DNA of 36,677 bases, taken from positions 1-36,677 of the forward strand of contig JAACED010000029.1 of assembly GCA_011682695.1 (NCBI GenBank). Reading direction: 5' to 3'. The position numbers and the translations under genes are program-made. This stretch comes from Gammaproteobacteria bacterium (GTDB taxonomy: Bacteria > Actinomycetota > Acidimicrobiia > Spongiisociales > UBA4744). Positions 8,141-24,433 of the stretch are shown in pieces. Every line of letters starts with the position of its first letter. Position 1 is the stretch's first letter. The notes beneath the pieces are model-generated. The model was given only the letters and a program-made list of their open reading frames with translations. It had not been told where the DNA came from and made no database searches.

Positions 8141-8795
8141 CTGAACACTCCGTGTCGATCATCTGGCCGTGACGGTCACCGTCGACGGCGAGGTCCGTGT
8201 CGTGGGTGACCAAGATGGCGGTCGTGCCGCCGGCCAACCGTTCGCGGATCAGGGACATGAGGATGTCACCGTTGGCGCTGTCGAGGTTGCCGGTGGGTTC
8301 GTCGCAGAGCAGGATCGGCGGATCGTGGGCCACCGCTCGCGCGAACGCCACCCGCTGACGCTCGCCGCCGGACAAGGAGCCCGGCAGGGCCTCCAGGCGA
8401 TGTCCCAGATCAACTGCCTCGAGGGCTTCGATCGCCCGTCGCCGGCGCTCCCGCCGTGGAAGGCCCGCGTACCGGAGGCCCTGCATCACGTTCTCGGTGG
8501 TTGTTCGGGTGGCGTCGAGGAAGGAGTCCTGGAAGACGAAACCCAGTTTGTGCCCCCGGAATCTGGTTCGTTCGGCTTCCGAGAGCGACATGACGGAGGC
8601 GTCGTCGATGATCAGATTGCCGGTCGTCGGCCGGTCCAGGAGCCCCAACAGGTTGAGGAGGGTGGACTTTCCGGAGCCGCTCTTGCCGGTGATGACGACG
8701 AACTCGCCGTCGTCGATGCGGAAGCTCGTGTCCCGGACGGCGTGAACCCGCCCTTCGTCGAAGAACCGGCCGAGAGCCGTCGCCTCCATGCTCAT
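8133..8795 (-). CDS. ABC transporter ATP-binding protein (MacB/LolD-like)
   Basis: The 220-residue ATPase contains a full set of ABC motifs: Walker A GKSGSGKST (37-45), Q-loop Gln89, signature LSGGERQRVA from 141, Walker B ILLCDEPTGNLD from 161 and switch His198 in VTHD. The Walker B continuation PTGNLD is typical of the MacB/LolD/FtsE group. I chose the ATG at 8795 because a GTGAGAGG ribosome-binding site lies about nine bases upstream and because the upstream gene stops only 13 bases before. A second ATG two codons later is also possible. The gene sits between the adaptor and permease genes with overlaps or near-overlaps, so all three are surely co-transcribed. It is a single-permease exporter, so two copies of each subunit are expected to assemble. 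Confidence 0.93.
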   Translation of the reverse strand: MSMEATALGRFFDEGRVHAVRDTSFRIDDGEFVVITGKSGSGKSTLLNLLGLLDRPTTGNLIIDDASVMSLSEAERTRFRGHKLGFVFQDSFLDATRTTTENVMQGLRYAGLPRRERRRRAIEALEAVDLGHRLEALPGSLSGGERQRVAFARAVAHDPPILLCDEPTGNLDSANGDILMSLIRERLAGGTTAILVTHDTDLAVDGDRHGQMIDTECSGG

Positions 8796-8808
8796 GCGGT
8801 GCAGCCTC

Positions 8809-9768
8809 TCACCGTTGGAGCAGCAGTTCGTCGCCGACTTCGAGTCGGTCCGAGCGGAGCTCGACGAGCTCGTCGCCGATGAAACCGACGGTGACCGGCA
8901 CCCGTTCGACGGTTCCGCCGGCAAGCCGCTCCACATAGGTCCCGCCGTCGGGGCCTGCGGCGACAACGGTACCCGGTGCAGCCAGGACCGGCCCGGCGGT
9001 GGCTTCGGAGACGACCTCGACCGTAATGCCCCCGGTCTGGTCTCCGATGAGCTGCGCTATCGGGGGCTCGGTTTGGACGACTTGCCCGTCGACGTCGACA
9101 CCAACGGGGGCTGTGAGAACGTCGACGACGGTCGCCGCCTGGGGTTCTGCTCCGGGAGCGGTCCACAGGAGCAGATCCGTCCCGTTGGTGATCGTCCCAG
9201 GAACACCGTCGAACTGGAGGCGTATTCCGGGACGCCGCAGGAAGACCTCCGGGCCTCTGGGGACCAACACCGTACCGACCTCGATACCGTCGGCGGACCA
9301 GAGCCACGCGGCCTCTGGGGTCAGGAGCACCTCGCCCAGTGGCAGCCCCGTCTGCCCGTCTCCCGTGGCCGGTGGCTCGTAGCCACGGTCGAGATAGAGG
9401 TCTCGGACGGCCGCCCCGGTGTCGGGGCCGAAGACCCCAGGCTCGTCGGTGATCGGATACCCAAGACGACCGAGGGCCCGTTGCACCATCTCGACGTCGC
9501 GGCCTCGCGAGCCGGACTGCAGGTCCCGCCATCCGGGAAACGGGCTGTAGAGCAGCATGACAGGCCGCGACTGGATCTCCACGACCACGTCCCCTTCGAG
9601 GACCTCGTCCCCGGCACGCTTCGGCATGGCGGTGACGACCCCGGATCGGTCGATCGGAAAACGCTCCGGATTGTCGATCACCTTCGCACGCAGGAACACG
9701 CCGCGGCGAAGCACCTCACCCGGTGCGTGTAACACCACACCCATCATGCCACCCAGCGGTGTCTTCAC
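8809..9768 (-). CDS. Peptidoglycan-binding, HlyD-like adaptor of the ABC exporter (N-terminus split off by an apparent frameshift)
   Basis: The 319-residue frame encodes a periplasmic-adaptor-like protein. A barrel-sandwich half (VVTAMPKRAGDEVLEGDVVVEI) comes first. A peptidoglycan-binding type 1 domain follows (about residues 86-128, SGSRGRDVEMVQRALGRLGY then FGPDTGAAV), and then a second beta-rich half ends in VELRSDRLEVGDELLLQR. This layout is common for adaptors encoded beside actinobacterial MacB-like ABC exporters. The frame opens with a GTG at 9768 that has no ribosome-binding site or membrane anchor. The expected anchor is encoded just upstream in another frame (see the fragment at 9716-9871). 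One base fewer in the GGG run at 9768-9770 would join the two into a 353-residue protein. I treat this as the larger part of one gene that is either frameshifted or mis-sequenced. Confidence 0.8.
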   Translation of the reverse strand: MKTPLGGMMGVVLHAPGEVLRRGVFLRAKVIDNPERFPIDRSGVVTAMPKRAGDEVLEGDVVVEIQSRPVMLLYSPFPGWRDLQSGSRGRDVEMVQRALGRLGYPITDEPGVFGPDTGAAVRDLYLDRGYEPPATGDGQTGLPLGEVLLTPEAAWLWSADGIEVGTVLVPRGPEVFLRRPGIRLQFDGVPGTITNGTDLLLWTAPGAEPQAATVVDVLTAPVGVDVDGQVVQTEPPIAQLIGDQTGGITVEVVSEATAGPVLAAPGTVVAAGPDGGTYVERLAGGTVERVPVTVGFIGDELVELRSDRLEVGDELLLQR

Positions 9769-11031: not shown

Positions 11032-12714
11032 ATGACACACAACATCGTCGGGCGCGTCATCGGCACCGAAGACGCCACACCGCTGGGGTTCTGGGTGGGT
11101 GTCGCCCCCGGCGAGTACCTGCAGCTCGACGACGTCGTCGCTCTCGAACGCACCCTCCCCGGCGGCGACACCGTGCACATCTACGGCATCGTGGAGCAGG
11201 TGCGGGCCCGCCACGAAGGCGCCCGGTTTGATTCGGACGTGTTCTTGATCGAGGACGGCGTGCTGCCGGCCGAGGTCAGCGAGGCGGCCAAGGTGGTCGC
11301 GACGCGTTTCGAGCCGGAGACGTTCGTCCCGCCGCGTCCCGGGCAGGGTGTCGTGCGCGCGACGGGGGAGGAGCGGGATCGGGCGCTGTTCTTCGACCGC
11401 ATGACCGATCGGATTCCCGTCGGCTTGAGCAGGTCGGGTGAGCCGATGTTCGTGAATCTGGAATTCGTCGACGGCGCTCGGGGCGCTCACGTCAACATCT
11501 CCGGGGTCTCCGGCGTCGCAACGAAGACCACCTACGCGACCTTCCTGCTCCACAGCCTCTTCACCTCGGGCGTTCTGGGCGCGCGGGCGGTCAACACCAA
11601 GGCGCTCATCTTCAACGTCAAAGGCGAGGACCTGCTGTTCCTCGACCGCCCGAACCTGGCGATGGGCGACGACCAGGCCAAGCGGTATCGCACCCTTGGT
11701 CTCCCGGCGACTCCGTTCCGGTCCGTCGGCATCTACGTGCCGCCGAAGCATGGGTCGCCGTCTGCGGCACCCGATGTGCGGGCCCGCCACGAAGGTGTCA
11801 CGCCGTTCTTCTGGACGATCGCCGAGTTCTGCACGCAGGATCTCCTGCCGTTCCTCTTTGCCGATGCCGAGGACGACCGCGCCCACTACACGATGGTCGT
11901 GTACAACGTGATGGCTCGCCTGCGCAAGGCGACCGTTCTGGACGACGGCGGCGTGGCGATCGATGGCGAGCCGGTTCGGACCTTCCGGGACCTCGCAGAT
12001 CTCATCACCCGAAAGGTGCAGGAAGAGGACACGCGTGTCGAATGGGCAGGTCCTGCGATCGGCATCGGTACCGTCAATGCATTCGTTCGCCGCATCCAGG
12101 GAGCCGTCCGTCATGTCGAGCACCTCGTCAGGGGTGATCTCCCGAGCGCGGAGCGACACCGCATCGAGTTGCGGCGACAGGTGACCGTCGTGGATCTTCA
12201 CAACCTCAACGACAGGGCGAAGCGGTTCGTTGTCGGAGTCACCGTGCGCCGGGCGTTCGAGGACAAGGAACACCAGGGCCAGTCCGACGAGTTGCTGTTC
12301 CTCGTTCTGGATGAACTGAACAAGTACGCACCGCGAGAGGGGTTCAGCCCGATCAAGGAGATCCTCCTCGACGTTGCCGAGCGCGGGCGGTCGCTCGGCG
12401 TGATCTTGATCGGCGCCCAGCAGACGGCAAGTGAGGTGGAGCGGCGCATCATCGCGAACTCTGCCATCCGCGTGGTCGGCCGCCTCGATTCGGCCGAAGC
12501 CGGTCGCGACGAATATGGGTTCCTCCCGGTTGTGCAGCGGCAGCGGGCCACCATCATGAAGCCCGGCACGATGATCGTCGCCCAGCCCGAGCTGCCGATC
12601 CCGGTCGTCCTCGAGTTCCCGTTCCCCGCCTGGGCAACCCGAGCTTCGGAGGCGGGCCCACCCATCGGCGGGGGAGACGCGCCGGAGGATCCCTTCGAAG
12701 GCCTGACGGACTGA
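11032..12714 (+). CDS. herA: HerA-like DNA translocase / DUF87-type ATPase
   Basis: The 560-residue protein has a small N-terminal beta-barrel (HAS-like, about 1-75) followed by a RecA-fold ATPase of the HerA/FtsK superfamily. The strand VNISGVSG leads into GVATKTT, a P-loop that keeps Lys165-Thr166 but departs from GxxxxGKS. Walker B is LLFLVLDE (421-428), with Asp427/Glu428. A sensor segment LIGAQQTASEVERRIIANSA and a conserved VVGR (Arg484, candidate arginine finger) follow. HerA proteins form hexameric rings that pump DNA and activate the NurA nuclease during end resection. A NurA homologue and both Mre11/Rad50-type genes lie 3-6 kb downstream on the same strand. I chose ATG 11032 because homology begins there and a -10-like TACGCT lies seven bases upstream; the frame is open much further upstream but that part is non-coding in character. 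Confidence 0.85.
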   Translation: MTHNIVGRVIGTEDATPLGFWVGVAPGEYLQLDDVVALERTLPGGDTVHIYGIVEQVRARHEGARFDSDVFLIEDGVLPAEVSEAAKVVATRFEPETFVPPRPGQGVVRATGEERDRALFFDRMTDRIPVGLSRSGEPMFVNLEFVDGARGAHVNISGVSGVATKTTYATFLLHSLFTSGVLGARAVNTKALIFNVKGEDLLFLDRPNLAMGDDQAKRYRTLGLPATPFRSVGIYVPPKHGSPSAAPDVRARHEGVTPFFWTIAEFCTQDLLPFLFADAEDDRAHYTMVVYNVMARLRKATVLDDGGVAIDGEPVRTFRDLADLITRKVQEEDTRVEWAGPAIGIGTVNAFVRRIQGAVRHVEHLVRGDLPSAERHRIELRRQVTVVDLHNLNDRAKRFVVGVTVRRAFEDKEHQGQSDELLFLVLDELNKYAPREGFSPIKEILLDVAERGRSLGVILIGAQQTASEVERRIIANSAIRVVGRLDSAEAGRDEYGFLPVVQRQRATIMKPGTMIVAQPELPIPVVLEFPFPAWATRASEAGPPIGGGDAPEDPFEGLTD

Positions 12715-12767
12715 TCTTCATCCTCTTGGGCGACACGCTCTCCTGCCGGTGACTAGCGTCGGAGGAC

Positions 12768-13865
12768 ATGATCATCCAGGCTGCGTTGTTCCTTGGCTTC
12801 CCCGTGGTGGCACGATGGGGGGCACGCAAGTACAAGGCGCTGCGCTTTCTCGGTCCGATCGTCCTTTGCTACCTCTTCGGCATTGCCCTCGGCAACCTGG
12901 TTTCCATGGACACCGAACTCGCCACGATGTTCACCGAGGCGACCGTCATCCTCGCCATCCCGCTGCTGTTGTTCACCACCGATTTCCGGGCATGGCTGCG
13001 GATAGCAAGACCCGCCGTCATCTCGTTCACGCTCGCCGCCGTGGCGGTCATCATCACCGCGGCAACCGCGACATTGATCCTCGCCGGGCCGCACGATTGG
13101 CAGATGGCCGGCATGACCGTCGGCGTCTACACGGGTGGCACCCCCAACATGAGCGCCATCGGCATCGCCCTCGGTGTCCCGGATGAGACGTTCGTGCTAC
13201 TCAACGGCGCCGACGTGATCCTCTCCGGGGTGTACCTGCTGTTCCTGCTGTCGATCGCCCAACGGGTCCTCGGCAAATTCCTGCCGGCGTTCGATCACTC
13301 GCGCCTCGGAGACGACTTCGACGACGGTGAACGAGCCGATTTCGGATGGCGCAACGTGCTCGCCGCCCTCGGGCTGAGCATCCTGTCCTCCGGGGTCGCC
13401 GTCGGGATCGTCTATGTGCTCGCTCCCGACCTGCCGATCGCCGCGGTCATCCTCGCCATCACCACCGTCGGCATCCTGGCGTCTTTCGTCCCGAAGATCC
13501 GGAATCTGCCCGGCACGTTCGAGACCGGGGAGTTCCTGCTCCTTGTGTTCGCCGTCGCCGTCGGCACCCTCGCCAACGTCAGGCGACTCGTCGGAGCGTT
13601 CGGCGACGTGTTCCTCTTCGTCGCCATCGTCCTCATCGGCGCGATCCTGTTGCATTACCTGTTGGCGACCTTCTTTCGGATCGACACCGACACGGTGCTC
13701 ATCACCTCCACCGCCGCCGTGTTCGGCCCGGCGTTCGTCCCGCCCGTCGCCGCCGCGTTGAAGAACCGGCAAATCCTCGTCTCGGGCCTCACCACCGGGG
13801 TCGTCGGCTATGCGATCGGCAACTACGCCGGAATCGCGCTTGCCTACCTGCTCCGGCCCGGCTGA
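12768..13865 (+). CDS. DUF819 family integral membrane protein
   Basis: The 365-residue polytopic protein has about ten hydrophobic segments. VYTGGTPNMSAIG near residue 125 and ITSTAAVFGPAFVPPVAAALKN near the C-terminus are hallmarks of the DUF819 (YjcL-like) family. This is a group of bacterial and plant-plastid membrane proteins that resemble secondary transporters with two inverted halves, each with a GG/GP-rich re-entrant motif. Substrate is unknown. It starts at ATG 12768, preceded by TAGCGT eight bases upstream (possible -10 for a leaderless transcript) and by GGAGG, which is too close to act normally. It follows herA by 53 bases on the same strand; a functional link to DNA repair is doubtful. 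Confidence 0.85.
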   Translation: MIIQAALFLGFPVVARWGARKYKALRFLGPIVLCYLFGIALGNLVSMDTELATMFTEATVILAIPLLLFTTDFRAWLRIARPAVISFTLAAVAVIITAATATLILAGPHDWQMAGMTVGVYTGGTPNMSAIGIALGVPDETFVLLNGADVILSGVYLLFLLSIAQRVLGKFLPAFDHSRLGDDFDDGERADFGWRNVLAALGLSILSSGVAVGIVYVLAPDLPIAAVILAITTVGILASFVPKIRNLPGTFETGEFLLLVFAVAVGTLANVRRLVGAFGDVFLFVAIVLIGAILLHYLLATFFRIDTDTVLITSTAAVFGPAFVPPVAAALKNRQILVSGLTTGVVGYAIGNYAGIALAYLLRPG

Positions 13866-13878
13866 TCGGTCTGCCGGC

Positions 13879-15198
13879 TCAGGTCGAGTAGAGGCTCTCC
13901 AGCATCTGCAGCACGATCTCCTCGACCATGCCGGTGTCCGGCAGCGTCGCCATCATCCCGTACATCGCAGCTTGGCCGACCGTCGAGGCCTGCGGATTCG
14001 CCCGTACCTCGTCGACCGCGGCTGCGAGATCGCCGAGGAACGCGTCAACGATGCCCGTATGCGCGGGTGTCACCATCAGGTGAAGGGACGACGGGTTGAT
14101 CTGTCGGTCGATGTGCCAGCCTCGTGACTCGACCGCATCGGCGACGGCGAAGATGTCGACGTCGGTCCCGATGAACGAGAAGACGCTGAGCAGTGGGTCG
14201 CCGAGAATCTCGAGCCCCGGAATGCCGCGGACACCGTCGATAAGGCGGCGGGACGTCTCGAGTATCTGGCCCGCCATCTGCAGGTACCCGTCCTCACCGA
14301 TGGCCTGGAGCGCAGCCCACGCCGCGGCGATCGCGCCACCCGGTCGGGTGCCCGCCATCGACGGTGACGCGTAGATGCCTCCCGGCCAATCCGCGGTGAC
14401 GTGGAATTGGTACCTGCGGAGTTCCGGCGTTCGATAGAGAATCGTCGAAGCGCCTTTCGCCGCGAATCCGTACTTGTGGACGTCGGCCGACATCGAAGTG
14501 ACCCCGGGAACCCGGAAATCCCATGGTTCGATCGGCACGCCAAGGCGTTCTGCCCACGGTACGAGGAACCCGCCGAGGCAGGCATCGACGTGGAACCCGA
14601 TGCTTCGGTCTGCGGCGATCTCTCCGAGACGTCCGATCGGATCGATCTGGCCGTGCGGGTAGTCCGGCGTCGATCCGACCATGAGGATCGTGTTCGGGGT
14701 GATGGCCGCTTCCATCGCCGCAGGGTCGGCGCGGAGATCGTTTCCCACGGGCACGCGTACGGCGCGCACATCGAAGTAGTCGGCAGCCTTGTCGAACGCG
14801 GCGTGCGCCGTGGTGGGGAGCACCATCTCCGGTTCCGAGATGCCGTGGGTGACGCGGCCCCAATCTCGATAGGTCTTGACGGCCATCAGCAGGCTCTCGG
14901 TGCCGCCGGAGGTCATCGTGCCTGCGACCCGATCATCTCCGTGAAGCATCGACGCGGTCATTCCGACCACCTCGGCTTCGAACTTTCGCAGTGCCGGGAA
15001 CGCGATCGGGTTGAGGCCGTTCTCACTGAAGAACACACCGTACGCCTCTTTCAGGAATGCGGTGTGCTCGTCGCCGGCGTGGTAGACGAGGCTCCACGTG
15101 TGCCCTTCGTGCCAGTTGGCGTCTGCATCGTGCAGGTGTCGCATTTCGTCGAGGATCTCGTCGTGGGGCCGTCCGGTTGGGGGGATCTGTGCTGTCAT
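13879..15198 (-). CDS. Sphingosine-1-phosphate-lyase-like group II PLP-dependent decarboxylase/lyase
   Basis: The 439-residue fold-type I PLP enzyme has SMSADVHKYGFAAKG with the Schiff-base Lys242, HVDACLGG with Asp205 for the PLP ring, and MTSGGTES at 95-102 for phosphate binding. The SADVHKYG-x-x-x-KG pattern and the N-terminal WSLVYHAGDEH/FFSENGLNP region closely match the sphingosine-1-phosphate lyase subgroup. Glutamate or DOPA decarboxylases fit less well. Bacterial members cleave or decarboxylate phosphorylated amino-alcohols or remain uncharacterised. I chose ATG 15198 because the further 22 in-frame codons upstream are not conserved in character; a TACGCT -10-like box lies at 15210-15215 in the minus direction. 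It converges on the DUF819 gene with a 13-base gap and diverges from sbcD. Confidence 0.82.
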   Translation of the reverse strand: MTAQIPPTGRPHDEILDEMRHLHDADANWHEGHTWSLVYHAGDEHTAFLKEAYGVFFSENGLNPIAFPALRKFEAEVVGMTASMLHGDDRVAGTMTSGGTESLLMAVKTYRDWGRVTHGISEPEMVLPTTAHAAFDKAADYFDVRAVRVPVGNDLRADPAAMEAAITPNTILMVGSTPDYPHGQIDPIGRLGEIAADRSIGFHVDACLGGFLVPWAERLGVPIEPWDFRVPGVTSMSADVHKYGFAAKGASTILYRTPELRRYQFHVTADWPGGIYASPSMAGTRPGGAIAAAWAALQAIGEDGYLQMAGQILETSRRLIDGVRGIPGLEILGDPLLSVFSFIGTDVDIFAVADAVESRGWHIDRQINPSSLHLMVTPAHTGIVDAFLGDLAAAVDEVRANPQASTVGQAAMYGMMATLPDTGMVEEIVLQMLESLYST

Positions 15199-15299
15199 AA
15201 CGACACCCGAGCGTAGCGATCGGACACACAGGCCGCAGGGGGTCGTTCCTCCGCGAGAGACCACCGGCGATGTCGTACCCGACCGTTACCATCGGGCGC
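15199..15299. promoter_or_regulatory. Divergent intergenic region with a candidate sbcD -10 element
   Basis: The 101-base spacer separates the S1P-lyase-like gene from sbcD. TACCAT at 15287-15292 fits the -10 pattern and sits seven bases before the GTG at 15300. This supports GTG as a leaderless start and argues against the ATG at 15270, which would lie upstream of the promoter element. Confidence 0.4.
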
Positions 15300-16448
15300 G
15301 TGAGGATTCTGCACACCGCCGACTGGCACGTCGGACGATCGATTCGTGGACGTAGCCGCACCGACGAACATCGGGCCGTCCTCGCCGAGATTGCCGATGT
15401 CGCCCGCCGTGAGGCCGTCGACCTCGTCCTCGTCGCCGGCGACACGTTCGACGTGGTCGCGCCGAGCGCCGAATCGGAGCGCATCGTCTACCAGGCGCTC
15501 CTCGACCTCTCCGACATCGCACCCGTGGTGCTCATCGCCGGCAACCACGACCATCCCCGACGGTGGCGGGCTGTCGCTCCGCTCTTCGAAATGGGCCGGG
15601 TCACCGTCGGCGCGACACTGCAACGTCCCGACGAAGGGGGAGTGGCACGCATCCAGACGGACGCCGGCGAGACGGCGCGCATCGCCCTCGTACCGTTCGT
15701 CGGCAAACGCGGGATCGTCACTGCCGACGACCTGATGGCGCTCGACCCGTTCGAACACGGCGGCAAGTACGCCGGAAGGGTCGAAGCGATCCTCGACAAG
15801 CTCACCGAAGGCATGACGTCCGACGATGTCAACCTCGTCGTCGCCCACCTCATGATCGCCGAAGGAAGGCTGGGAGGCGGTGAGCGCATCGCCTTCACGG
15901 TCGAGGACTATGCGATCCCCGCGACCGCATTCAGCGGGTCCCTGTCCTATGTCGCACTCGGACACCTGCATCGCATGCAATCCGTCCCCGCACCGGCGCC
16001 CGTGTGGTACGCAGGATCACCGATGCAGCTCGACTTCGGTGAGAGAGACGACGAGAAAGGCCTCCTCGTCGTCGACGCCGAACCGGGCCTCCCCGCAACG
16101 GTCCGACCGGTTCCCCTCACCGCCGGAAGGCGGCTCATCCAACTCGCCGGTACGCTGGAGGAGCTCGAAGTCCGCTCTGGTGAGGCAGAGTTCGCCGACG
16201 CGTACCTCAAGATCGTCGTGCATGAATCGGCGCGGGCCGGACTCGGCGATGTCGTCCGAGAGCTGTTCCCCAACGCCGTGGACGTACTGTTGGCCTCGCC
16301 GAGAGACATCGGCGCGACGGATCGTGACGTGCGTCTCGGCCGTCCACCCCGCGAGCTGTTCATCGAGTATCTCGAACAGGTCGATGCCTCCGATGACGAT
16401 GTCGTCGCCCTCTTCGACGAGATGCTGGGAGACATCGATGCGACCTGA
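15300..16448 (+). CDS. sbcD: Exonuclease subunit SbcD (Mre11 family)
   Basis: The 382-residue calcineurin-like phosphoesterase is the nuclease half of the SbcCD (Mre11-Rad50) complex, which opens hairpins and processes double-strand ends with Mn2+. Metal-binding motifs in order are ADWHVG (Asp8, His10), VAGDTFD, AGNHDHP, VVAHLM and GHLHRMQ. The C-terminal capping region (about 270-382) ends in an acidic tail. GTG at 15300 gives VRILHTADWH, matching the usual Mre11 N-terminus. An ATG 30 bases earlier would add ten unconserved residues. Its end overlaps sbcC by 11 bases, so the two are co-translated in the usual sbcD-sbcC order. Confidence 0.93.
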   Translation: MRILHTADWHVGRSIRGRSRTDEHRAVLAEIADVARREAVDLVLVAGDTFDVVAPSAESERIVYQALLDLSDIAPVVLIAGNHDHPRRWRAVAPLFEMGRVTVGATLQRPDEGGVARIQTDAGETARIALVPFVGKRGIVTADDLMALDPFEHGGKYAGRVEAILDKLTEGMTSDDVNLVVAHLMIAEGRLGGGERIAFTVEDYAIPATAFSGSLSYVALGHLHRMQSVPAPAPVWYAGSPMQLDFGERDDEKGLLVVDAEPGLPATVRPVPLTAGRRLIQLAGTLEELEVRSGEAEFADAYLKIVVHESARAGLGDVVRELFPNAVDVLLASPRDIGATDRDVRLGRPPRELFIEYLEQVDASDDDVVALFDEMLGDIDAT

Positions 16449-18816
16449 ACGCCTCGAGCTCTCCGGTTTCACCGCGTTCAGGGAGCCCACCGAGGTCGAC
16501 TTCACCGGAGCGGACCTGTTCGCTCTCACCGGGCCGACCGGATCGGGCAAGTCGAGCATCATCGACGCCATCGTCTTCGCCCTGTACGGCTCCGTTCCCC
16601 GGTACGGCGACCGCCGGACCGTCGAGCCGGTCATCACTCTCGGCAAGGTCGAGGCGCGCATCCGCTTCGACTTCACGATCGGTGAGGAGCACTACACGGC
16701 GGTCAGGGTCGTCCGCCGACTCAAGAAAGGGGCGACCACGGCCGAAGCCCGGCTCGAACACGACGGAACCGTGATTGCCTCGGGAGCCGACGAGGTCACC
16801 GACGCCGTCCAACGACTCCTCGGTCTCTCCTACGACCACTTCGTCAAGAGTGTCGTCCTGCCCCAAGGCAGATTCGCCGCTTTCCTTCACGACAAACCGA
16901 CCGACCGTCAAAAGCTCCTCCGAGAACTCCTCGACCTCGGTGTCTACGAGCGGGTGCGAGAGCACGCACGAGACAGGAAGATCGCAACGCAGCAGAAGGC
17001 CGCCATGCTCGAAGCCCAGATCGCCGAGCTGGCCGGCGCAACCGAGGAAGCCGAGGCCGACGCGGTCGGACGAGTCAGGGACCTCGAAGCGCTCTTGAAG
17101 GTCGTCGAAGAGGCGACCGAGAAGATCGTCACACTGCAAACCGACGCCGAAACATGGGCGCGGCAAGCCAAGGAAGCTCAGGCAGAACTCGACCTCCTCG
17201 AGGGTCTCGAAGTCCCCGGCGGTCTCGACCAACTCGCTGCCAAGACCGTCGCCGTCAGGCAAGAACGCGGCAAGGCCGAAGAAGCCTTGAAGCTCGTCAG
17301 AGAGAAGTGTCGGCAGGTCGAGAAGCATCTCGAGACGCTTCCCAAACTCGCCGACCTCGAGAAGCTCGGTGAAGCGCATCAGGCATTCGCGCGCGCCGAA
17401 CGGCGGCTCGCCCAGCTCGGCGCTCAAAGTGCAGAGGCGCGTACCGGCGTGGTCGAAGCAGCAGGGAAGCTCGAGGCGGCGCAAGCCGCGTTGCAGGACG
17501 CCAAGGCGTCGGCCGCAGCACTCCGACAGGCACACACGGCACACGAACTCGCCACGACCTTGCGCACGGGCGAACCCTGCCCCGTCTGCAACAGGACCGT
17601 GGAGGCGGTCCCGCATCGGGAGACACCGGCGGACCTCGCGGGGGCGCTCGCCACGCTGCACGACGCGGAACAGGCACACCTTGGCGCGCAACGTCTCCAT
17701 GCGAGCTTCACGGCGAAGCTCGAAGCGCTGACGGCTCAGGAAGCCGTAGCCGCTCGGGAGGTCGAAGATCTGCGCGAGCGGATCACCGGTCGGCCCGACG
17801 AGAAGGAGGTCGCTGACCTGTACGGACAGGTCACTACAGCACAGGAGGAGGTGAGAGCAGCACGCGCAGCCGAGCAGGCGGCGATGGAGAGCCTCGGCGC
17901 TCTCGACGAGCGGATCAGACGTCTCGACGAGGCCGTCCAGGATGCACGCCGACGCTTTGACACGGTCCGGGATCGAGTCGCCGCCCTCGGACCGCCGGCA
18001 CCTCGCCGGGACGATCTTCTTGCCGACTGGACCGAGCTGGTCACCTGGGCACGGCATGCGGTGGATCATCGGTCCCGGATCGCCAAGGACGCCGCAGGGA
18101 AGGTCACGGCGGCGGAACAGGCGCTCGACGAGCAGCGTCGCGCCCTCATCGCCACCGTCGAGGAGGCCGGGCTCACCGTCGGCAGACGTCCCGTTCGTGA
18201 CGTCTGCGTCGATGCGATCGCCACCGCCAAGCTCGGTCTGGACCGGCTGCGTGCCGACCGTGTCCAGGCGGCAAAGCTCACCATCGAGGCGAAAGAGCAG
18301 CGGCGAATCGCCACGGTCGCAGGCGCTCTCGAACAGCATCTTCGGTCGAACCGGTTCGAAGCATGGCTACTGGAGGAGGCCCTCGCGGATCTCACGGTCG
18401 GTGCGAACCGACTCCTCCATGAGCTGTCCTCGGGCGCCTATTCGCTCGAATCCGAAGGCCGCGGATTCACCGTCATCGACCACCGCAACGCCGACGGGCA
18501 GCGTTCCGTGAAGACCCTCTCGGGAGGCGAGACGTTCCTCGTCTCGCTCGCATTGGCACTGTCGCTCTCCGAGCAACTCGCCGCGATGTCCCTGAGCGGG
18601 AACGCACGGCTGGAATCGATCTTCCTCGACGAAGGGTTCGGGACACTCGATCAGGAGACCCTGGACGTGGTCGCCGGCGTGGTGCATGAACTCGGGGCTA
18701 CGGGCAGAACGGTCGGGCTGATCAGCCACGTCGAGGACCTGGCCGAACAGGTGCCGACCCGCTTCCTGGTCACCAAGGACGCCGGCGGAGCCCACGTGGA
18801 ACGGATCGATACATGA
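16438..18816 (+). CDS. sbcC: Exonuclease subunit SbcC (Rad50/SMC-like ATPase)
   Basis: The 792-residue protein is the ATPase and DNA-tethering half of SbcCD. The N-terminal lobe has GPTGSGKSS (32-40) and the Q-loop region. Coiled-coil arms rich in Glu, Ala and Lys run to a zinc-hook CPVC (Cys381 and Cys384) and back. The C-terminal lobe has the signature LSGGE from residue 694 and Walker B IFLDEGFGTLD with Asp731/Glu732. At 792 residues it is clearly shorter than the 1048-residue E. coli protein because the coiled coils are short, which is common in actinobacteria. It begins at ATG 16438 inside the end of sbcD, and its stop overlaps the nurA start as ATGA. The frame is open upstream through sbcD, but that part is a shadow. 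Confidence 0.93.
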   Translation: MRPERLELSGFTAFREPTEVDFTGADLFALTGPTGSGKSSIIDAIVFALYGSVPRYGDRRTVEPVITLGKVEARIRFDFTIGEEHYTAVRVVRRLKKGATTAEARLEHDGTVIASGADEVTDAVQRLLGLSYDHFVKSVVLPQGRFAAFLHDKPTDRQKLLRELLDLGVYERVREHARDRKIATQQKAAMLEAQIAELAGATEEAEADAVGRVRDLEALLKVVEEATEKIVTLQTDAETWARQAKEAQAELDLLEGLEVPGGLDQLAAKTVAVRQERGKAEEALKLVREKCRQVEKHLETLPKLADLEKLGEAHQAFARAERRLAQLGAQSAEARTGVVEAAGKLEAAQAALQDAKASAAALRQAHTAHELATTLRTGEPCPVCNRTVEAVPHRETPADLAGALATLHDAEQAHLGAQRLHASFTAKLEALTAQEAVAAREVEDLRERITGRPDEKEVADLYGQVTTAQEEVRAARAAEQAAMESLGALDERIRRLDEAVQDARRRFDTVRDRVAALGPPAPRRDDLLADWTELVTWARHAVDHRSRIAKDAAGKVTAAEQALDEQRRALIATVEEAGLTVGRRPVRDVCVDAIATAKLGLDRLRADRVQAAKLTIEAKEQRRIATVAGALEQHLRSNRFEAWLLEEALADLTVGANRLLHELSSGAYSLESEGRGFTVIDHRNADGQRSVKTLSGGETFLVSLALALSLSEQLAAMSLSGNARLESIFLDEGFGTLDQETLDVVAGVVHELGATGRTVGLISHVEDLAEQVPTRFLVTKDAGGAHVERIDT

Positions 18817-19823
18817 GGTTCTCCGTCGAGCCGTGGGCACCCGAATACGGCACACCGGTGGCGGCGGATTTGGCCGAGACCACGACCGTTCCCGACGTCG
18901 ATATCGAGGTGCCGGCGGCCGACTGGGCTCCGCTCGAACCCGACACCGAACCGGCCCGGTCGGTGCTGTTCATCGACGGTGTACGGCGGGTCGACGCCAA
19001 CGTGTGGGTAGGGCAGGAGGACGGCGTCCCGGTGTCGGGTCTCTGTGCCACTTACGCGGCGGGAGCCGTACGCTGTGACGGAGAGGCGAAGCTGGTCGAC
19101 GCCGAGGTGCGGAGGGGATTGTTCACGTCCGCTTCCGGAGCCGAGGCCGTCGTGATGAAGCATGGGACCTACGGCGTGCGCGCGACCGCCGGATCGTCCC
19201 TGGAGGAGCTGTGGCTGGGCCTTCAACAGCGGATGGGTGATCTGGAACGTGAGGTGGCGGGCCGCCTCTGCGCCACCGAACTGATCGTCACCGATGGTCC
19301 GCTCACCGGGCGTCAGCACGTGCCCGGAGGGGTCGGATATGTCAAGACCCACCGGGTGCAGTATCTCCCTGCGGCCCTGCAGACGGTGCTGACCCGGCTC
19401 CGGCCCGGGCAGCGGACACCGCTGTTCCTGGCCACGACATCGTGGAGTCGGTACTCGTGGTACACGCGTCTGCCCGGCGGCGGGGATGCTCCGCTCGGCG
19501 GGATCGTCCGCTGCGAGGCGAGCGCCGATCAGGACACCGCCTCCGCCCGCCGACTGGCGGATCGGGTATCGGCGACTCTTCCGCGGTTCGCTTCGGTCGC
19601 TCACAAGGATCCGCGGGCTCCCCAGAACCTGTATCCGATCGGCGGTCTGGAACGGGAGTTGCGCCGGCGGTTGGGCGACCAGCAGTTGCTGTACCGGGCG
19701 CTGCGAGTGGCGGCCTCACGCAGCGACGACCATCGGGCCCGCCGAAGCTCTCCGAACACAGCCGAAATCGGGACGTTCGTATCATCTCGGCGCCGGCTTA
19801 GACTGTGGCAAGGATTGGAATAG
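18813..19823 (+). CDS. nurA: NurA-like nuclease domain protein
   Basis: The 336-residue product resembles the NurA family, an RNase H-like 5'-3' nuclease that works with HerA. Recognisable elements are SVLFIDGVRRVDA with candidate catalytic Asp55, ELIVTDGPL with Asp161, the following GYVKTHRVQYLP (common in NurA after the second acidic motif), and LYPIGGLERELRRRLGD near the C-terminus. The catalytic acid between these (motif II) cannot be placed with confidence; Glu135 or Glu146 are possible. The start overlaps sbcC by four bases (ATGA), so it is translated as part of the sbcD-sbcC-nurA operon. The last ~35 residues are basic and low in conservation character and may be a loose tail. The assignment rests on motif pattern plus context and needs a profile search. 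Confidence 0.75.
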   Translation: MRFSVEPWAPEYGTPVAADLAETTTVPDVDIEVPAADWAPLEPDTEPARSVLFIDGVRRVDANVWVGQEDGVPVSGLCATYAAGAVRCDGEAKLVDAEVRRGLFTSASGAEAVVMKHGTYGVRATAGSSLEELWLGLQQRMGDLEREVAGRLCATELIVTDGPLTGRQHVPGGVGYVKTHRVQYLPAALQTVLTRLRPGQRTPLFLATTSWSRYSWYTRLPGGGDAPLGGIVRCEASADQDTASARRLADRVSATLPRFASVAHKDPRAPQNLYPIGGLERELRRRLGDQQLLYRALRVAASRSDDHRARRSSPNTAEIGTFVSSRRRLRLWQGLE

Positions 19824-19912: not shown

Positions 19913-21028
19913 ATGTCTCCCAAAGTCGTAGGCGCCGATCGATTCGACTCGCTCATCTCGCTCCTGCGAGACCGCGGCTACACGGTCATCGGTCCAACGA
20001 TCCATGAGCGAACGATCGTATACGGCAAGCTCGATGGGGCCGGTGACCTCCCGATCGGCTGGATGGACGAACAAGAGGCAGGGACATACCGGCTCGTGCG
20101 ACGAGACGACGACGCCTACTTCGGTCATACGGTCGGTCCGCGAACGCTCAAGAGCTTCCTGTTTCCTGCACGGCAAACGTTGTTCACGGCCGAACACGCG
20201 GAGACCGGCCTCAGGTTCCGTTCCGAGCGACCTGCGGATTCCCGCTACGCGTTCATCGGGGTGCGGGCGTGCGAGCTCGCGGCAGTTGCCATACAAGACG
20301 AGGTCTTTCTCGGATCGGCGTTCCGTGACCAGCACTACGCCTCGGCTCGGAACGGATCGTTCACCGTTGGCGTGAATTGTGCAGTTGCCGGAGCTACCTG
20401 CTTCTGTGCTTCGATGGATACCGGCCCCCGATGCGAGAGTGGCTACGACCTCGTCGTCACCGAAGTCCTCGAGCCCGATCGCCACGAGTTCGTCATCGAG
20501 TCGGGATCCGATGCGGGGTCAGAGGTCCTCGATGCTCTCGAGGGAAGGGCCGCTACGAAAGAGGACCTGGACCGTGTCGAGGCGATCGTCGCCGTCACGG
20601 AAGCGCACATGGGCAGGTCGATGCCGAACGAGGAGGTTTACGATCTCCTGACGAATGCCCTCGAACATCCGATGTGGGAATCGATTGCCCGCCGCTGCCT
20701 GAGCTGCGCCAACTGCACGTTCGTATGTCCAACCTGTTTCTGTTCCACGACCGAGGATTCGACCAACCTGGAGGGAACGGCTTCACGGCGGCGAACGTGG
20801 GACTCGTGCTTCGGCCTCGACTTCTCGAGCCTCCACGGGCACGCGGTCCGGTCTTCTCCGAGATCCCGCTACCGCCAGTGGATGACCCACAAGCTTGCCT
20901 ACTGGTACGACCAGTTCGGCACGTCTGGCTGTGTCGGTTGCGGCAGATGTATCACGTGGTGTCCGGTCGGAATCGACATCACCGCAGAGATCGACCTTCT
21001 TCGCAACGATTCGGAGGTGACCGTGTGA
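19913..21028 (+). CDS. Group 3b [NiFe] hydrogenase / sulfhydrogenase beta subunit (iron-sulfur)
   Basis: The 371-residue electron-transfer subunit corresponds to HydB/HyhB of NADP-linked bidirectional hydrogenases. The N-terminal two thirds contain GVRACELAAVAIQDEVF and CAVAGATCFCASM, diagnostic of the beta-subunit family (also seen in anaerobic sulfite reductase subunit A). The C-terminal third is a two-cluster ferredoxin domain with CLSCANCTFVCPTCFC and CVGCGRCITWCPVGID, expected to hold two [4Fe-4S] clusters. A GGAG ribosome-binding site lies seven bases before the ATG. It heads a seven-gene operon whose genes overlap end to end. Its role is to pass electrons between the small subunit and the flavin subunit. 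Confidence 0.9.
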   Translation: MSPKVVGADRFDSLISLLRDRGYTVIGPTIHERTIVYGKLDGAGDLPIGWMDEQEAGTYRLVRRDDDAYFGHTVGPRTLKSFLFPARQTLFTAEHAETGLRFRSERPADSRYAFIGVRACELAAVAIQDEVFLGSAFRDQHYASARNGSFTVGVNCAVAGATCFCASMDTGPRCESGYDLVVTEVLEPDRHEFVIESGSDAGSEVLDALEGRAATKEDLDRVEAIVAVTEAHMGRSMPNEEVYDLLTNALEHPMWESIARRCLSCANCTFVCPTCFCSTTEDSTNLEGTASRRRTWDSCFGLDFSSLHGHAVRSSPRSRYRQWMTHKLAYWYDQFGTSGCVGCGRCITWCPVGIDITAEIDLLRNDSEVTV

Positions 21029-21480
21029 AACTCGAACGATGGCGGGAGAGAAGTCCGCTGCTCGCGGAGATGGACGATCAGTCGTTCGCGTTCCTGGAGT
21101 CCATCGCCAAAGAAATCGCCGTTCGGGAGAACGAGATCATCTTCAGAGTGAACACACCTGCAGATCGCTTCTACCTGGTGATCGAGGGCACGATCTCGCT
21201 TCGGATCGCCGGCCCGTCTCATCCACCGATCACGATCCAGACCCTTGGGGAGGGTTGCCTCCTCGGGCTGAGCTGGCGTCTGCCTCCGTACAGATGGCGG
21301 TGGACCGCACAGGCGCTCACGGATTCGAAGCTGGCGATGTTCGATGCACAGACCGTGCTGGAAGCCTGCAAGCACAATCCACAACTCGACGCCGCCCTGT
21401 GGCGTGTGGTGGCAAGGGAATCGGCGAAGAGGCTGCACAACGCCCGGCTCCAGCTCCTCGATCTGTATGGCAAGAAATAA
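21025..21480 (+). CDS. Cyclic nucleotide-binding-domain protein without DNA-binding domain, hydrogenase-associated
   Basis: The 151-residue product is a stand-alone Crp-type beta-roll. LLAEMDDQSFAFLESIAKE is the N-terminal helix region, ENEIIFRVNTPADRFYLVIEGTISL is the classical CNBD core, and GEGCLLGLSWRLPPYRW replaces the usual GExxGE/R phosphate-binding cassette. A long C helix follows, ending in LYGKK. There is no helix-turn-helix, so it is unlikely to be a transcription factor. It starts with GTG overlapping the beta-subunit stop (GTGA) and overlaps the gamma-subunit start by 14 bases, so it is made in step with the enzyme. Similar small CNBD proteins are known within actinobacterial group 3b operons. 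A regulatory or assembly role is inference. Confidence 0.85.
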   Translation: MKLERWRERSPLLAEMDDQSFAFLESIAKEIAVRENEIIFRVNTPADRFYLVIEGTISLRIAGPSHPPITIQTLGEGCLLGLSWRLPPYRWRWTAQALTDSKLAMFDAQTVLEACKHNPQLDAALWRVVARESAKRLHNARLQLLDLYGKK

Positions 21481-22345
21481 CGTGGCGGCGACGACGAGAC
21501 TTCCCGATCCCGTGGCGGTCAACGAGCCCATGCTCCCCAGATCGTTCCGGGTATCCGAACGAGTGATCGAGTTCGCCGGCACGGTGACGCTCGATCTGGT
21601 TCCAAGCGACGGAGGGCCTCCCATCGCGTTCAGGCCGGGACAATTCGCGATGATCTACGTCCATGGTGTGGGCGAAGTGCCCATCTCCATCTCGGGAGAT
21701 ACCGGAGCGCCCGGGTCGCTCGTGCATACCGTACGGGCGGTGGGGGCCGTCACGGATGCCATCGTCGGGCTCCGGCCGGGCGACGAGGTCGGCATCCGCG
21801 GACCATATGGAAGTGCGTGGCCGATGACGAGGGCGATCGACCACGACGTGGTCGTCATCGCCGGCGGACTCGGGTTGGCCCCCGTGAGGCCGGCGATCTA
21901 CCACCTTCTCGGCCACCGCGATGCCTACGGCTTCGTGTCCGTTGCCTACGGCTCGCGCACACCGGCGGACCTTCTGTACCGCAGCGAGCTGCACGACTGG
22001 AAAGCGCGGTTCGACACCAACATCCAGATCACGGTTGATCACGCAACGGCAGGCTGGAGGGGCGATGTTGGTGTCGTCACGCCGCTCATCGACCGTCTCT
22101 CGTTCGATCCCTGCTTCACGATCGCGATCGTGTGCGGTCCAGAGATCATGATGCGAATCGTCGCTCGCGACCTCATGGCTCGCGGAGTGGCCGCAGGTGA
22201 TATCTATGTGAGCCTCGAGCGCAACATGAAGTGCGCGATCGGCTTCTGCGGGCATTGCCAGTTCGGATCGTCTTTCGTGTGCAAGGACGGGCCCGTGGTC
22301 TCCTATGCGACCGTTGCCGAACGACTCGGAATGGAGGAGCTATGA
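21467..22345 (+). CDS. Group 3b [NiFe] hydrogenase gamma subunit (FAD/NAD(P)-binding)
   Basis: The 292-residue ferredoxin-NADP reductase-like subunit (HydG/HyhG) docks NADP(H). [21 protein letters not shown] is the flavin-binding barrel, [15 protein letters not shown] the flavin phosphate loop, and [13 protein letters not shown] the nucleotide-binding motif. CxxxxCGxC followed about eight residues later by a fourth Cys ([20 protein letters not shown]) binds a [2Fe-2S] cluster. I take ATG 21467, overlapping the CNBD gene. A GTG at 21482, just after that gene's stop, is equally possible because neither has a clear ribosome-binding site. The stop overlaps the small-subunit ATG (ATGA), and GGAGGAGC supplies the ribosome-binding site for that gene. 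Confidence 0.9.
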
Positions 22346-23127
22346 CTCCCGCCGCCGCAAATCGGCCGAGTGTGGCCGTGTGGAAATTCGCGTCGTGCGA
22401 CGGATGCCAACTGACGCTGCTCGACTGCGAGGACGAATTCCTCACGATCGCTGGAGCCGTGCACATCGCCTACTTCCCGGAGGCGACGAGAGCAGCAACA
22501 GGCGGCCCATACGACCTGTCGATCGTCGAGGGGTCTATCACGACGAGCCACGACGCAGAGCGGATCCGCGAGATCAGAGCGATGTCCAAGACACTCCTCA
22601 CAATCGGTGCTTGTGCAACCGCCGGAGGGATACAGGCCCTGAAGAACTGGGCAGATGTCGACGAGTTCATCTCGATCGTGTATGCCCACCCCGAGTACAT
22701 CAGTTCGCTCGACACCTCGACGCCGATCTCCGACCACGTCGATGTCGATATCGAACTCCGGGGCTGTCCGATCTCGAAGCATCAACTCATCGAGGTCATC
22801 GACGCGTTTCTGACAGGCCGGCGGCCGACGACTCCCACCTACAGCGTGTGTGTCGAATGCAAGCTCCGCGGCACACCGTGTGTCATGGTGTCGCACGGTA
22901 CACCGTGTATGGGTCCTGTCACCCAGGCCGGGTGCGGCGCCCTATGCCCCGCGTTCAACCGCGGCTGCTACGGGTGTTTCGGACCGAGTGAATCACCGAA
23001 CATCGAGTCGCTTCGGGAGGCGTGGCACGCGATCGGAGCGGACGATACGCAGCTCGTCCGGGCGCTGCGGACGTTCAACGCCTACTCCCGAGAGTTCAAG
23101 GAGGCGAGTGATGCCTACGCCCGGTGA
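22342..23127 (+). CDS. Group 3b [NiFe] hydrogenase small (delta) subunit
   Basis: The 261-residue small subunit, like HydD/HyhS, lacks the twin-arginine signal of periplasmic enzymes, so the enzyme is cytoplasmic. The proximal cluster ligands start with Cys19 and Cys22 in [16 protein letters not shown] and continue with GACATAGG and RGCPISKH. The medial and distal clusters are supplied by the Cys-rich C-terminal half ([36 protein letters not shown]). [22 protein letters not shown] is also a family signature. It overlaps both flanking genes and is preceded by GGAGGAGC. Confidence 0.93.
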
Positions 23128-24433
23128 GTCCCGTGAGATCGCCGTCGACTACCTCGCCAGAGTCGAGGGCGAAGGAGCGATGTACTTGAAGATCGAGGGA
23201 GATCAGGTGAAGGACGTCCGGTTCAACATCTTCGAGCCGCCTCGGTTCTACGAAGCGGTGCTTCGTGGCAGACACTTCGCAGAAGCACCGGATATCACGG
23301 CACGTATCTGCGGCATCTGCCCTGTCGCGTACCAGACCAGTTCGGTGAATGCCATGGAGCATGCAGCCGGTGTCTCTGTCGGGGGCCAGATCAGGAATCT
23401 CAGGAAGCTTCTGTACTTCGGCGAGTGGATCGAGAGTCATTCCCTGCACGTCTACATGCTCCACACTCCCGATTTCCTCGGGTACCCGAGCGCGATCGAG
23501 ATGGCGGCCGATCTTCCCGAGGTGGTCACGAACGCCCTTCGGCTCAAGAAACTCGGCAACGACATCATGACCGCCGTTGGCGGCAGAGAGATCCATCCCA
23601 TCAACGTGAGGGTCGGGGGCTTCTACAGGGCGCCAACGAAGCGTGAGCTGCGCAACCTCGTCGACGAGCTTCAGTGGGCGACAGAAACAGCAGAGGAAAC
23701 CGTCTCGTTGGTAGCCGGGTTCGAGTTCCCCGATTTCGACATGGACTACGAGTTCGTGGCGCTCTATCACCCCGACGAGTACGCCATCACCGATGGGCGC
23801 ATCATCTCCAATCGGGGCCTCGACATCGACGTGGCAGAGTGGCGCGACCACTTCGAGGAGTCACACGTCGAATGGTCCAACGCTCTGCACGCGAGGATCA
23901 AGGATCGGGGTAGGTACCTCGTCGGGCCGATGGCCAGGTTCGCGCTCAGCGGCGAACAACTCGCACCGCGGGCGAAGGAAGCCGCAGCCGCCGTGGGTCT
24001 CACTCCTGGCGTGTCGAACCCGTTCAAGAGCATCATCGTTCGGGCGGTGGAGATCGTCCACGCATGTGATGAGGCGCTCAGGATCATCAACGCCTACGAA
24101 CCGCCCGAGACGCCGTTCGTCACGGTCGAACCGCGCTCTGCGATCGGCCATGGAGCGAGTGAGGCGCCTCGCGGACTGCTGTACCACCGGTATGAGATCG
24201 ATGCAGGGGGCCTGATCACTGACGCTCAGATCGTGCCTCCAACGTCGCAGAACCAGGCATCGATCGAGGAGGATCTGCGCAAGTTCGTGCCAGGACGGAC
24301 GCATCTGGACGATGACACCCTGCAGTGGCAGCTGGAGCAAGCCATCAGGAACTACGACCCGTGCATTTCATGCGCAACGCACTTCCTCGACCTCACGGTG
24401 GAAAGGGTCGGCGACACATGGCGCGCAGACTGA
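23111..24433 (+). CDS. Group 3b [NiFe] hydrogenase large (alpha) subunit, catalytic
   Basis: The 440-residue subunit carries the NiFe(CN)2CO active site. The N-terminal ligand motif is [14 protein letters not shown] (Cys67, Cys70). The C-terminal motif is DPCISCATH (Cys418, Cys421, His424), followed by a 16-residue tail that the maturation protease should remove after His424. Other family features are the N-terminal [17 protein letters not shown] and [15 protein letters not shown]. The Ser/Cys pattern and gene order match cytoplasmic NADP-linked group 3b enzymes, which oxidise H2 or evolve it as a sink for reductant and can reduce polysulfide. The ATG lies inside the end of the small-subunit gene (17-base overlap). 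Confidence 0.95.

What the first reader, a model, noticed from the sequence alone, without database searches (positions are those of the whole stretch)
11032..19823. HerA, SbcD, SbcC and NurA homologues together in what looks like an actinobacterial chromosome
In archaea HerA-NurA and Mre11-Rad50 form one operon for double-strand-break resection. Here a tight sbcD-sbcC-nurA operon (11- and 4-base overlaps) lies 2.6 kb downstream of a HerA-like ATPase on the same strand. Only a DUF819 gene and a minus-strand PLP-lyase gene intervene. The motifs of all four are visible. In most actinobacteria resection is attributed to AdnAB or RecBCD, so this window may hold an archaeal-type end-resection module in a bacterium, with the herA gene detached from the operon. 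Presence of the genes is seen; that they work together is inference.
Basis: partly seen in the sequence, partly recalled or inferred. Interest (0 to 1): 0.72.

Follow-up and report, generated by a model that had tools for sequence, protein, structure and literature searches.

The report
Bacterial HerA-SbcCD-NurA DNA-end gene module
This bacterium carries, close together on one strand, the genes for four DNA-break proteins (HerA, SbcD, SbcC and NurA) that archaea keep in one operon; in the related genomes examined these genes were found or missing as a set while the usual AdnAB genes stayed, so the four likely work as one machine that would trim broken DNA ends for repair.

Summary

The grouping is conserved: all four genes stand on one strand, in one of only two orders (herA-sbcD-sbcC-nurA or nurA-herA-sbcD-sbcC), in 85 of 96 neighbourhoods from this order and phylum and in 60 of 80 named loci (Micromonospora, Pseudonocardia, Chloroflexi MAGs). 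In 46 good genomes of the order, herA, nurA and sbcD are all present (39) or all absent (7); AdnA stays in all seven. In the window a DUF819 and a PLP gene part herA from the rest.

Corrections: the proteins are bacterial-type, not archaeal-type, and this genome also has AdnAB, so the module does not replace it here. A bacterial HerA-SbcCD cluster was already noted in Oceanithermus (PMC5448004). That the four act together in end resection is inferred, not tested. A new member of a known kind, unusually well supported as a unit.

The parts
11032..12714 (+). herA: bacterial-type HerA DNA translocase ATPase (560 aa); Walker A GVSGVATKT (K165, T166), Walker B D427/E428
   Evidence: PDB 7f6d HerA E=3.7e-152; residue mapping to drHerA; the GVATKT core is in 119 of 120 close homologues, GIATKT in one, and invariant over 13 diverse rows
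15270..16448 (+). sbcD: Mre11-family nuclease subunit (392 aa)
   Evidence: TIGR00619 165.5 bits, cut-off 77.65; Metallophos PF00149 50 bits, cut-off 21.5
16438..18816 (+). sbcC: Rad50-family ATPase (792 aa; CPVC zinc-hook motif read from the sequence); overlaps sbcD by 11 bases
   Evidence: AAA_23 84.5 bits and SbcC_Walker_B 44.9 bits, both over Pfam cut-offs; TIGR00618 279.4 bits, below its 478.5 cut-off
18813..19823 (+). nurA: bacterial-type NurA nuclease (336 aa here; close homologues about 300-304); catalytic D55, K178, R268 and W8 kept; overlaps sbcC by 4 bases
12768..13865 (+). DUF819 membrane protein gene lying between herA and sbcD; judged an insertion, not part of the module
   Evidence: PF05684 125.3 bits; found at this place in the two congeners and in none of the other 37 order loci compared
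13879..15264 (-). PLP-dependent decarboxylase (MfnA-like) gene on the opposite strand between herA and sbcD; judged not part of the module
   Evidence: TIGR03812 231.4 bits, below its 299.4 cut-off; found at this place in the two congeners and in none of the other 37 order loci compared

Best explanation
The window holds a bacterial-type herA gene and, 2.6 kb downstream on the same strand, an overlapping sbcD-sbcC-nurA gene run, and the four proteins likely act as one machine that would resect DNA double-strand ends beside AdnAB. Inferred mechanism, step by step: SbcC-SbcD (the bacterial Rad50-Mre11) would recognise and open ends that are blocked, hairpinned or protein-bound; a HerA hexamer would then load on the duplex and pump it, by ATP hydrolysis, through its HAS-barrel face into a NurA dimer; NurA would cut the 5' strand and leave a 3' tail for RecA. 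Shown here: the identities, the conserved catalytic residues, the conserved co-location in two fixed orders, the all-or-none presence of herA, nurA and sbcD across 46 good genomes of the order, and the coexistence with AdnAB genes. Known from Deinococcus, not from this organism: the HerA-NurA 6:2 complex and ATP-driven 5'-tail resection (PMC9960219). Untested: the link of SbcCD to HerA-NurA in bacteria, co-transcription, and any division of labour with AdnAB. The herA gene would be the first gene of what was a compact four-gene operon, later parted from it by a DUF819 and a PLP-decarboxylase gene in this genus.
For: Identities. Working residues: drHerA K175, T176, D487, E488, R495, R513, R552 map to K165, T166, D427, E428, R435, R453, R492, K217 and D220 to K197 and D200 (printed alignment), and drNurA D53, K201, R309 to D55, K178, R268; roles from PMC9960219. 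Co-location: 38 herA-sbcD-sbcC-nurA + 47 nurA-herA-sbcD-sbcC of 96 neighbourhoods; 29 + 31 of 80 named loci. Compact form in relatives: herA-sbcD gaps of 0-116 bases in L054, L055, L057-L059, L079, L081-L083. Co-presence: of 46 genomes at least 90% complete and at most 5% contaminated (own genome included), 39 have NurA, HerA and SbcD, 7 have none, 0 are mixed; all seven keep AdnA. The seven sit in two families (5 of 9 good genomes of f2, 2 of 8 of f8, 0 of 29 elsewhere; my count), and one (G026) is listed as a single-contig genome, so a mere assembly gap is unlikely for it. Co-inheritance: the two gene orders are separated by one change on the HerA, SbcD and SbcC trees and two on the NurA tree. 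In genus g8 six genomes hold one lineage and one the other, beside three to five of the same flank genes.
Against: No expression, interaction or activity data. HerA's NurA-binding acidic patch is only partly kept (drHerA D78 maps to D69, but E80 and D81 to F71 and L72), drHerA R154 maps to E144, and of the basic NurA motifs H89, R92, K303 and R337 have no basic counterpart. In the phylum sample 63 of 117 SbcD-positive genomes lack this HerA, so SbcCD does not need HerA there; in Thermus (PMC5448004, passages) and in L182-L184 nurA-herA stands without neighbouring sbcDC. Because the genes are neighbours, one missing stretch of an assembly would remove all of them at once. Pfam NurA and HAS-barrel scores are below cut-off. 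Deletion of nurA or herA is reported to give modest or improved damage resistance in D. radiodurans or Thermus (PMC9960219, background text), so a repair role in vivo is not settled. The HerA model was too poor to use (pLDDT 60.8), the HerA split between gene orders has only SH-aLRT 69, and six of the 47 order-B calls rest on weak NurA matches (39-53 bits, L138-L143).
Confidence: 0.72

Rival explanations
1. HerA-NurA and SbcCD are two separate repair enzymes that merely share an operon for common regulation: SbcCD would cut hairpins and palindromes, HerA-NurA would do another job, with no hand-over between them.
For: SbcCD stands without HerA in 63 of the 117 SbcD-positive genomes of the phylum sample, and nurA-herA without sbcDC next to it in Thermus (PMC5448004, passages) and in L182-L184. 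In S. islandicus Mre11 and Rad50 were not co-purified with HerA (PMC4351679, passage).
Against: In the 46 good genomes of this order SbcD over its cut-off is never found without HerA and NurA, and whole modules differ between close species, which common regulation alone does not predict. Sulfolobus Mre11 does interact with HerA (PMC2288612, title and passages).
Confidence: 0.17
2. The cluster is an anti-phage defence system: a HerA-like ring feeding invading DNA to a nuclease, like the HerA-Sir2, HerA-DUF4297 or TdpAB systems (these names and roles in part recalled).
Against: NurA has no PADLOC hit at E<=0.01, and HerA is far closer to the Deinococcus HerA (E=4e-152) than to any of those chains. 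The module is in 39 of 46 good genomes sampled of the order, its gene trees agree largely with one another, and its neighbours in the window are metabolic genes.
Confidence: 0.07
3. HerA here serves as a chromosome pump in segregation, as proposed for archaeal HerA by Iyer et al. (named in PMC2288612), and NurA/SbcCD are only clean-up enzymes.
For: HerA is an FtsK relative; the idea is in print (PMC2288612, passage).
Against: Bacteria have FtsK for this (established knowledge), seven good genomes of the order lack this HerA, and HerA here is tied to two nucleases rather than to division genes.
Confidence: 0.03

Closest known systems
Archaeal mre11 operon herA-mre11-rad50-nurA (Sulfolobus; PMC4351679, PMC2288612, PMC5448004, passages read)
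   Same: Same four protein families together, and the window's order herA-sbcD-sbcC-nurA matches the order in which PMC4351679 lists the S. islandicus operon.
Deinococcus radiodurans NurA-HerA (PMC9960219, parts 1-3 of 9 and passages; PDB 7f6d, 7wrw, 7wrx)
   Same: HerA of the same clade (E=4e-152) with the same unusual P-loop; catalytic residues of both proteins kept.
   Different: That paper says Deinococcus-Thermus lacks RecBCD/AddAB (yet the title of PMC9751324, seen in a listing only, names addAB genes of Thermus thermophilus HB27) and treats nurA-herA as a two-gene operon; here sbcCD is part of the cluster and AdnAB is present.
Oceanithermus profundus hepA (herA) with sbcD and sbcC downstream (PMC5448004, passages)
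   Same: Bacterial cluster; with nurA before hepA, as I read the passage, the order is that of lineage B here (47 of 96 neighbourhoods).
   Different: The window has the other order (lineage A); that paper reads the Oceanithermus case as a recruitment of SbcCD in one genus, while here the four-gene linkage is seen in many actinobacteria and several Chloroflexi MAGs.
Mycobacterial AdnAB (PDB 6ppj, 6ppu, 7sjr; identity of these entries as AdnAB recalled)
   Same: Also a DNA-end resection motor-nuclease of actinobacteria, present in this genome.
   Different: UvrD-type helicases with PD-(D/E)XK nuclease domains, unrelated to HerA-NurA and kept where HerA-NurA is missing.

Membership tests
HerA (bacterial clade) | Full-length similarity to a characterised HerA, HAS-barrel plus RecA-like domain | tested here: met
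   drHerA aligned over residues 5-299 and 312-550, E=3.7e-152; Pfam HAS-barrel only 19.6 bits, under its 25.2 cut-off
HerA (bacterial clade) | P-loop Lys/Thr, Walker B Asp-Glu, catalytic D220, trans-acting R513 and the DNA-binding or mutated R495, R552 of drHerA | tested here: met
   K165, T166, D427, E428, R453, R435, R492 and D200 (alignment); drHerA R154 maps to E144 in the pairwise alignment and is not kept
HerA (bacterial clade) | Hexameric ring, DNA-dependent ATPase | not testable with these tools
   no multimer prediction or assay; the monomer model failed (pLDDT 60.8)
NurA (bacterial type) | NurA fold | tested here: met
NurA (bacterial type) | Catalytic D53, K201, R309 and W8 of drNurA | tested here: met
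   D55, K178, R268 and W8 by position; all four invariant over 30 rows
NurA (bacterial type) | Curated profile PF09376 over its gathering score | tested here: not met
   16 bits, cut-off 21; 0 matches at E<=0.001 in the whole genome. Most of the 120 listed homologues also carry no precomputed PF09376, so this is judged a limit of the profile
NurA-HerA complex | Negative patch on HerA HAS-barrel facing basic motifs of NurA | tested here: inconclusive
   HerA D69 kept, E80/D81 positions are F71/L72; NurA R258, H264, K265, R295, R298 basic; V262, A296 and the H89/R92 positions not; motif 2 not aligned
Archaeal-type HerA-NurA | Closer to archaeal than to bacterial NurA | tested here: not met
HerA-Mre11-Rad50-NurA operon | All four genes adjacent and co-oriented | tested here: met
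   co-oriented, with herA 2,555 bases away in the window, so adjacency is not strict here; gap-free or nearly so in nine order loci; 85 of 96 neighbourhoods hold all four on one strand
HerA-Mre11-Rad50-NurA operon | Co-transcription of the four genes | not testable with these tools
   no transcript data
SbcCD | SbcD profile over cut-off and SbcC head domains | tested here: met
   TIGR00619 165.5 bits, AAA_23 and SbcC_Walker_B over cut-off; the full-length SbcC model TIGR00618 is below its cut-off
Anti-phage HerA systems | Defence partner (Sir2, DUF4297, TdpB) and defence profiles at strong scores | tested here: inconclusive

The most novel reading that the evidence does not exclude
HerA, SbcD, SbcC and NurA form one portable bacterial DNA-end resection cassette, an accessory to AdnAB, that is gained, lost and swapped whole: two old lineages with permuted gene order (herA-sbcD-sbcC-nurA and nurA-herA-sbcD-sbcC) displace each other, even at the same chromosomal site within one genus, and SbcCD in these bacteria serves HerA-NurA rather than acting alone.
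Probability: 0.5. Interest if true: 0.65.

Novelty: new member of a known kind. Interest (0 to 1): 0.5.

Why it matters
A 2015 paper left open whether SbcCD is connected to HerA-NurA in Deinococcus (PMC4663267, passage). The fixed linkage and all-or-none presence found here point to yes in this order, and the named loci offer culturable carriers such as Micromonospora chalcea DSM 43026 (L197), where the genes could be deleted and tested. If the module works as inferred, resection in many actinobacteria should not be attributed to AdnAB alone, and 'HerA-NurA is archaeal' is too narrow.

Tried and rejected
Replacement of AdnAB by the module was tested and rejected: AdnA is in 58 of 60 genomes of the order set, own included. 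The two without it, G022 and G029, looked like AdnAB losses that keep the module. But G022 has no match to the whole 20-kb AdnAB neighbourhood of its congener G015, and G029's matches run to base 43,983 of a contig that ends at 44,012, just before adnAB, so this is an assembly question. An earlier direct comparison with another stretch of G022 gave nothing.

AdnB across the phylum at E<=1e-60 gave 59 of 296, which is too strict to separate absence from divergence and is not used as a distribution.

An SOS-box scan (CGAAC-N4-GTTCG, recalled, up to 2 mismatches) gave 52 matches against a shuffle mean of 33.8; its three one-mismatch sites lie inside sbcC or beyond nurA, none upstream of herA or sbcD; not used.

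Literature: HerA+NurA+bacteria (67 papers, 30 listed), +Actinobacteria (4), +SbcC+operon (6), FtsK-HerA superfamily+NurA (12), 3 of SbcC/NurA/HerA/Chloroflexi (9), AdnAB+HerA (5), 2 of NurA/Micromonospora/Actinomycetota/SbcCD (143, 10 listed). Listings only, except PMC9960219 (parts 1-3 of 9 and passages) and PMC5448004, PMC4663267, PMC4351679, PMC2288612 (passages). None of what I saw describes the actinobacterial cluster, but the two 2004 papers most likely to mention bacterial clusters (Constantinesco et al.; Iyer et al.) are not held.

Rows dropped before counts: of the 51 NurA-positive genomes of the order set, 39 were fetched. Not fetched were the window's own, five whose NurA and HerA hits lay on different contigs or without strong HerA (G003, G021, G039, G045, G054) and six left out for economy (G018, G023, G025, G030, G049, G051). 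Of 57 HerA-positive genomes of the phylum sample outside the order, two weak ones (G240, G280) were not fetched. HerA rows under 480 aa and short NurA, SbcD and SbcC rows were left out of the trees.

Full report
WHAT IS THERE. The window is contig C29 of a 2.58-Mb, 127-contig genome that is 99.5% complete. Names of close homologues point to Actinobacteria and Acidimicrobiia. Between 11032 and 19823 on the + strand lie herA (560 aa), a DUF819 gene, then sbcD (392 aa), sbcC (792 aa) and nurA (336 aa); a PLP-decarboxylase gene on the - strand lies between DUF819 and sbcD.

CONSERVATION OF THE GROUPING. I fetched 39 neighbourhoods from genomes of the same order and 57 from 55 other genomes of the phylum. 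In 38 the order is herA-sbcD-sbcC-nurA (A; 20 order, 18 phylum), in 47 it is nurA-herA-sbcD-sbcC (B; 18 and 29), one shows nurA-herA-sbcD at a contig end, and ten, all from the phylum set, are partial. Of the partial ones, two (G108, G129) have sbcD 14.2 and 10.7 kb further on the same strand, three (G229, G287, G339) have it on another contig, and five (L101, L108, L112, L119, L121) run out at or near a contig end. Six of the B calls (L138-L143) rest on weak NurA matches of 39-53 bits. In nine order loci the A form is compact, with herA-sbcD gaps of 0-116 bases (L054, L055, L057-L059, L079, L081-L083); in nine herA is 1.5-7 kb away (L047, L049-L053, L056, L077, L078). The window's DUF819 and PLP genes are shared at this place with its two congeners and with none of the other 37. 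A scan of named genomes returned 80 loci: 31 B, 29 A, 10 herA-sbcD-sbcC, 4 nurA-herA-sbcD, 4 nurA-herA, 2 herA alone; several of the incomplete ones end at contig ends. Carriers of all four include Micromonospora, Pseudonocardia, Streptosporangium, Nonomuraea and Chloroflexi MAGs; three loci (bacterium SZAS-1 and two Eremiobacterota MAGs, L182-L184) have nurA-herA only in the stretch held. Only the best 80 of at least 560 relatives were returned, so this is not a distribution. In the phylum sample HerA at E<=1e-20 is in 63 of 296 genomes. Of these, 54 have SbcD at E<=1e-20 with TIGR00619; of the nine others, six have an sbcD-like gene near herA by my own profiles, two were not fetched and one (G187) ends. 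Against the reading: 63 genomes of the sample have SbcD without HerA.

ALL OR NONE. The order set has 60 genomes, the own one included; 46 are at least 90% complete and at most 5% contaminated. Of these 39 have NurA, HerA and SbcD, 7 have none, and none is mixed; of all 60, 49 have all three, 8 none and 3 are mixed, the three being 77-79% complete. HerA here means E<=1e-70; at E<=1e-3, 58 of 60 match, the seven extra ones being weak hits (E 1e-6 to 6e-5), presumably to other ATPases. SbcD means over the TIGR00619 cut-off; some of the seven show weaker metallophosphatase hits. Because the genes are linked, one assembly gap could remove them together. But the seven lie in two of eight families, two are of one genus, and one is a single-contig genome, so loss is the better reading for at least some. 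All seven keep AdnA.

TWO LINEAGES. On quick maximum-likelihood trees the two gene orders are separated by one change for HerA (support 69), SbcD (99) and SbcC (100), and by two for NurA, where the program warns of long branches meeting. So order and sequence have mostly travelled together. Both lineages occur in this one order. In genus g8 six genomes have A and one (G017, L073) has B, next to three to five of the same flank genes at 57-79% identity but with the module turned round; sharing was seen on one flank only. One genome (G334) holds both, another (G197) two B forms. This looks like displacement of whole modules, though old duplication with differential loss is not excluded.

ADNAB. 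The same genome carries on C5 two adjacent proteins of about 1,000 aa, each with UvrD helicase and PD-(D/E)XK domains, whose best solved matches are the two chains of 6ppj/6ppu/7sjr (that these are mycobacterial AdnAB is recalled). No RecC family was found (the control rings in E. coli). The module therefore works, if at all, beside AdnAB.

HOW IT LIKELY WORKS. From Deinococcus work HerA is a hexameric DNA pump that binds a NurA dimer 6:2 and drives 5'-tail digestion (PMC9960219). In Sulfolobus the four genes form an operon, all four essential (PMC4351679, passages), and Mre11 interacts with HerA (PMC2288612). By homology and linkage I infer that SbcCD prepares ends and HerA-NurA resects them to 3' tails here. 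Every functional step in this organism is inference.

NOVELTY. Bacterial HerA-NurA is known, and a bacterial hepA-sbcD-sbcC cluster was reported in Oceanithermus (PMC5448004, passages). What I did not find in the listings and passages seen is its spread through actinobacteria in two orders, the all-or-none presence, and its coexistence with AdnAB; two key 2004 papers were not readable. I therefore call it a new member of a known kind.

Noticed in passing
window 19722-19823 (3' end of nurA): nurA lacks the stop codon that congeners G001 and G002 have at about codon 303-304 and runs on for about 32 residues; the model is of low confidence there (residues 321-335 under pLDDT 50).
   Followed up: partly
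window 19913-24433: A sulfhydrogenase-like NiFe hydrogenase gene set (HydB-like 4Fe-4S protein by profile; then CRP-like, flavin reductase-like, small and large subunits by eye) starts about 90 bases after nurA on the same strand.
   Followed up: no
L073 against L058, L059, L080-L083: Within one genus three to five of the same flank genes (sugar dehydrogenase-like, MFS transporter, SRPBCC, SerC-like and aspartate aminotransferase-like by eye) border lineage A modules in six genomes and a reversed lineage B module in one.
   Followed up: partly
L134 and L135 (G334); L113 and L143 (G197): Single genomes with two modules: G334 has one of each gene order, G197 has two of order B, the second very divergent (P-loop GIAGAGTKSS).
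   Followed up: no
L138-L142 (family f29): A divergent HerA group (P-loop GMSGLSTKTS) with weak NurA (39-46 bits), SbcD and SbcC matches still in order nurA-herA-sbcD-sbcC.
   Followed up: no
L086:15500-16300: A 266-aa stand-alone PD-(D/E)XK nuclease sits one gene away from AdnAB; a similar protein (65% identity) lies next to AdnA in G015.
   Followed up: no
G022 and G029 (genus g6): No AdnA match although the HerA-SbcCD-NurA module is present; the AdnAB neighbourhood is missing from one assembly and cut by a contig end in the other, so a real loss cannot be told.
   Followed up: partly
window 6974-9768, minus strand: An ABC-type permease, ATPase and a peptidoglycan-binding/efflux adaptor-like protein in a row, read by eye from the ORF list.
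   Followed up: no
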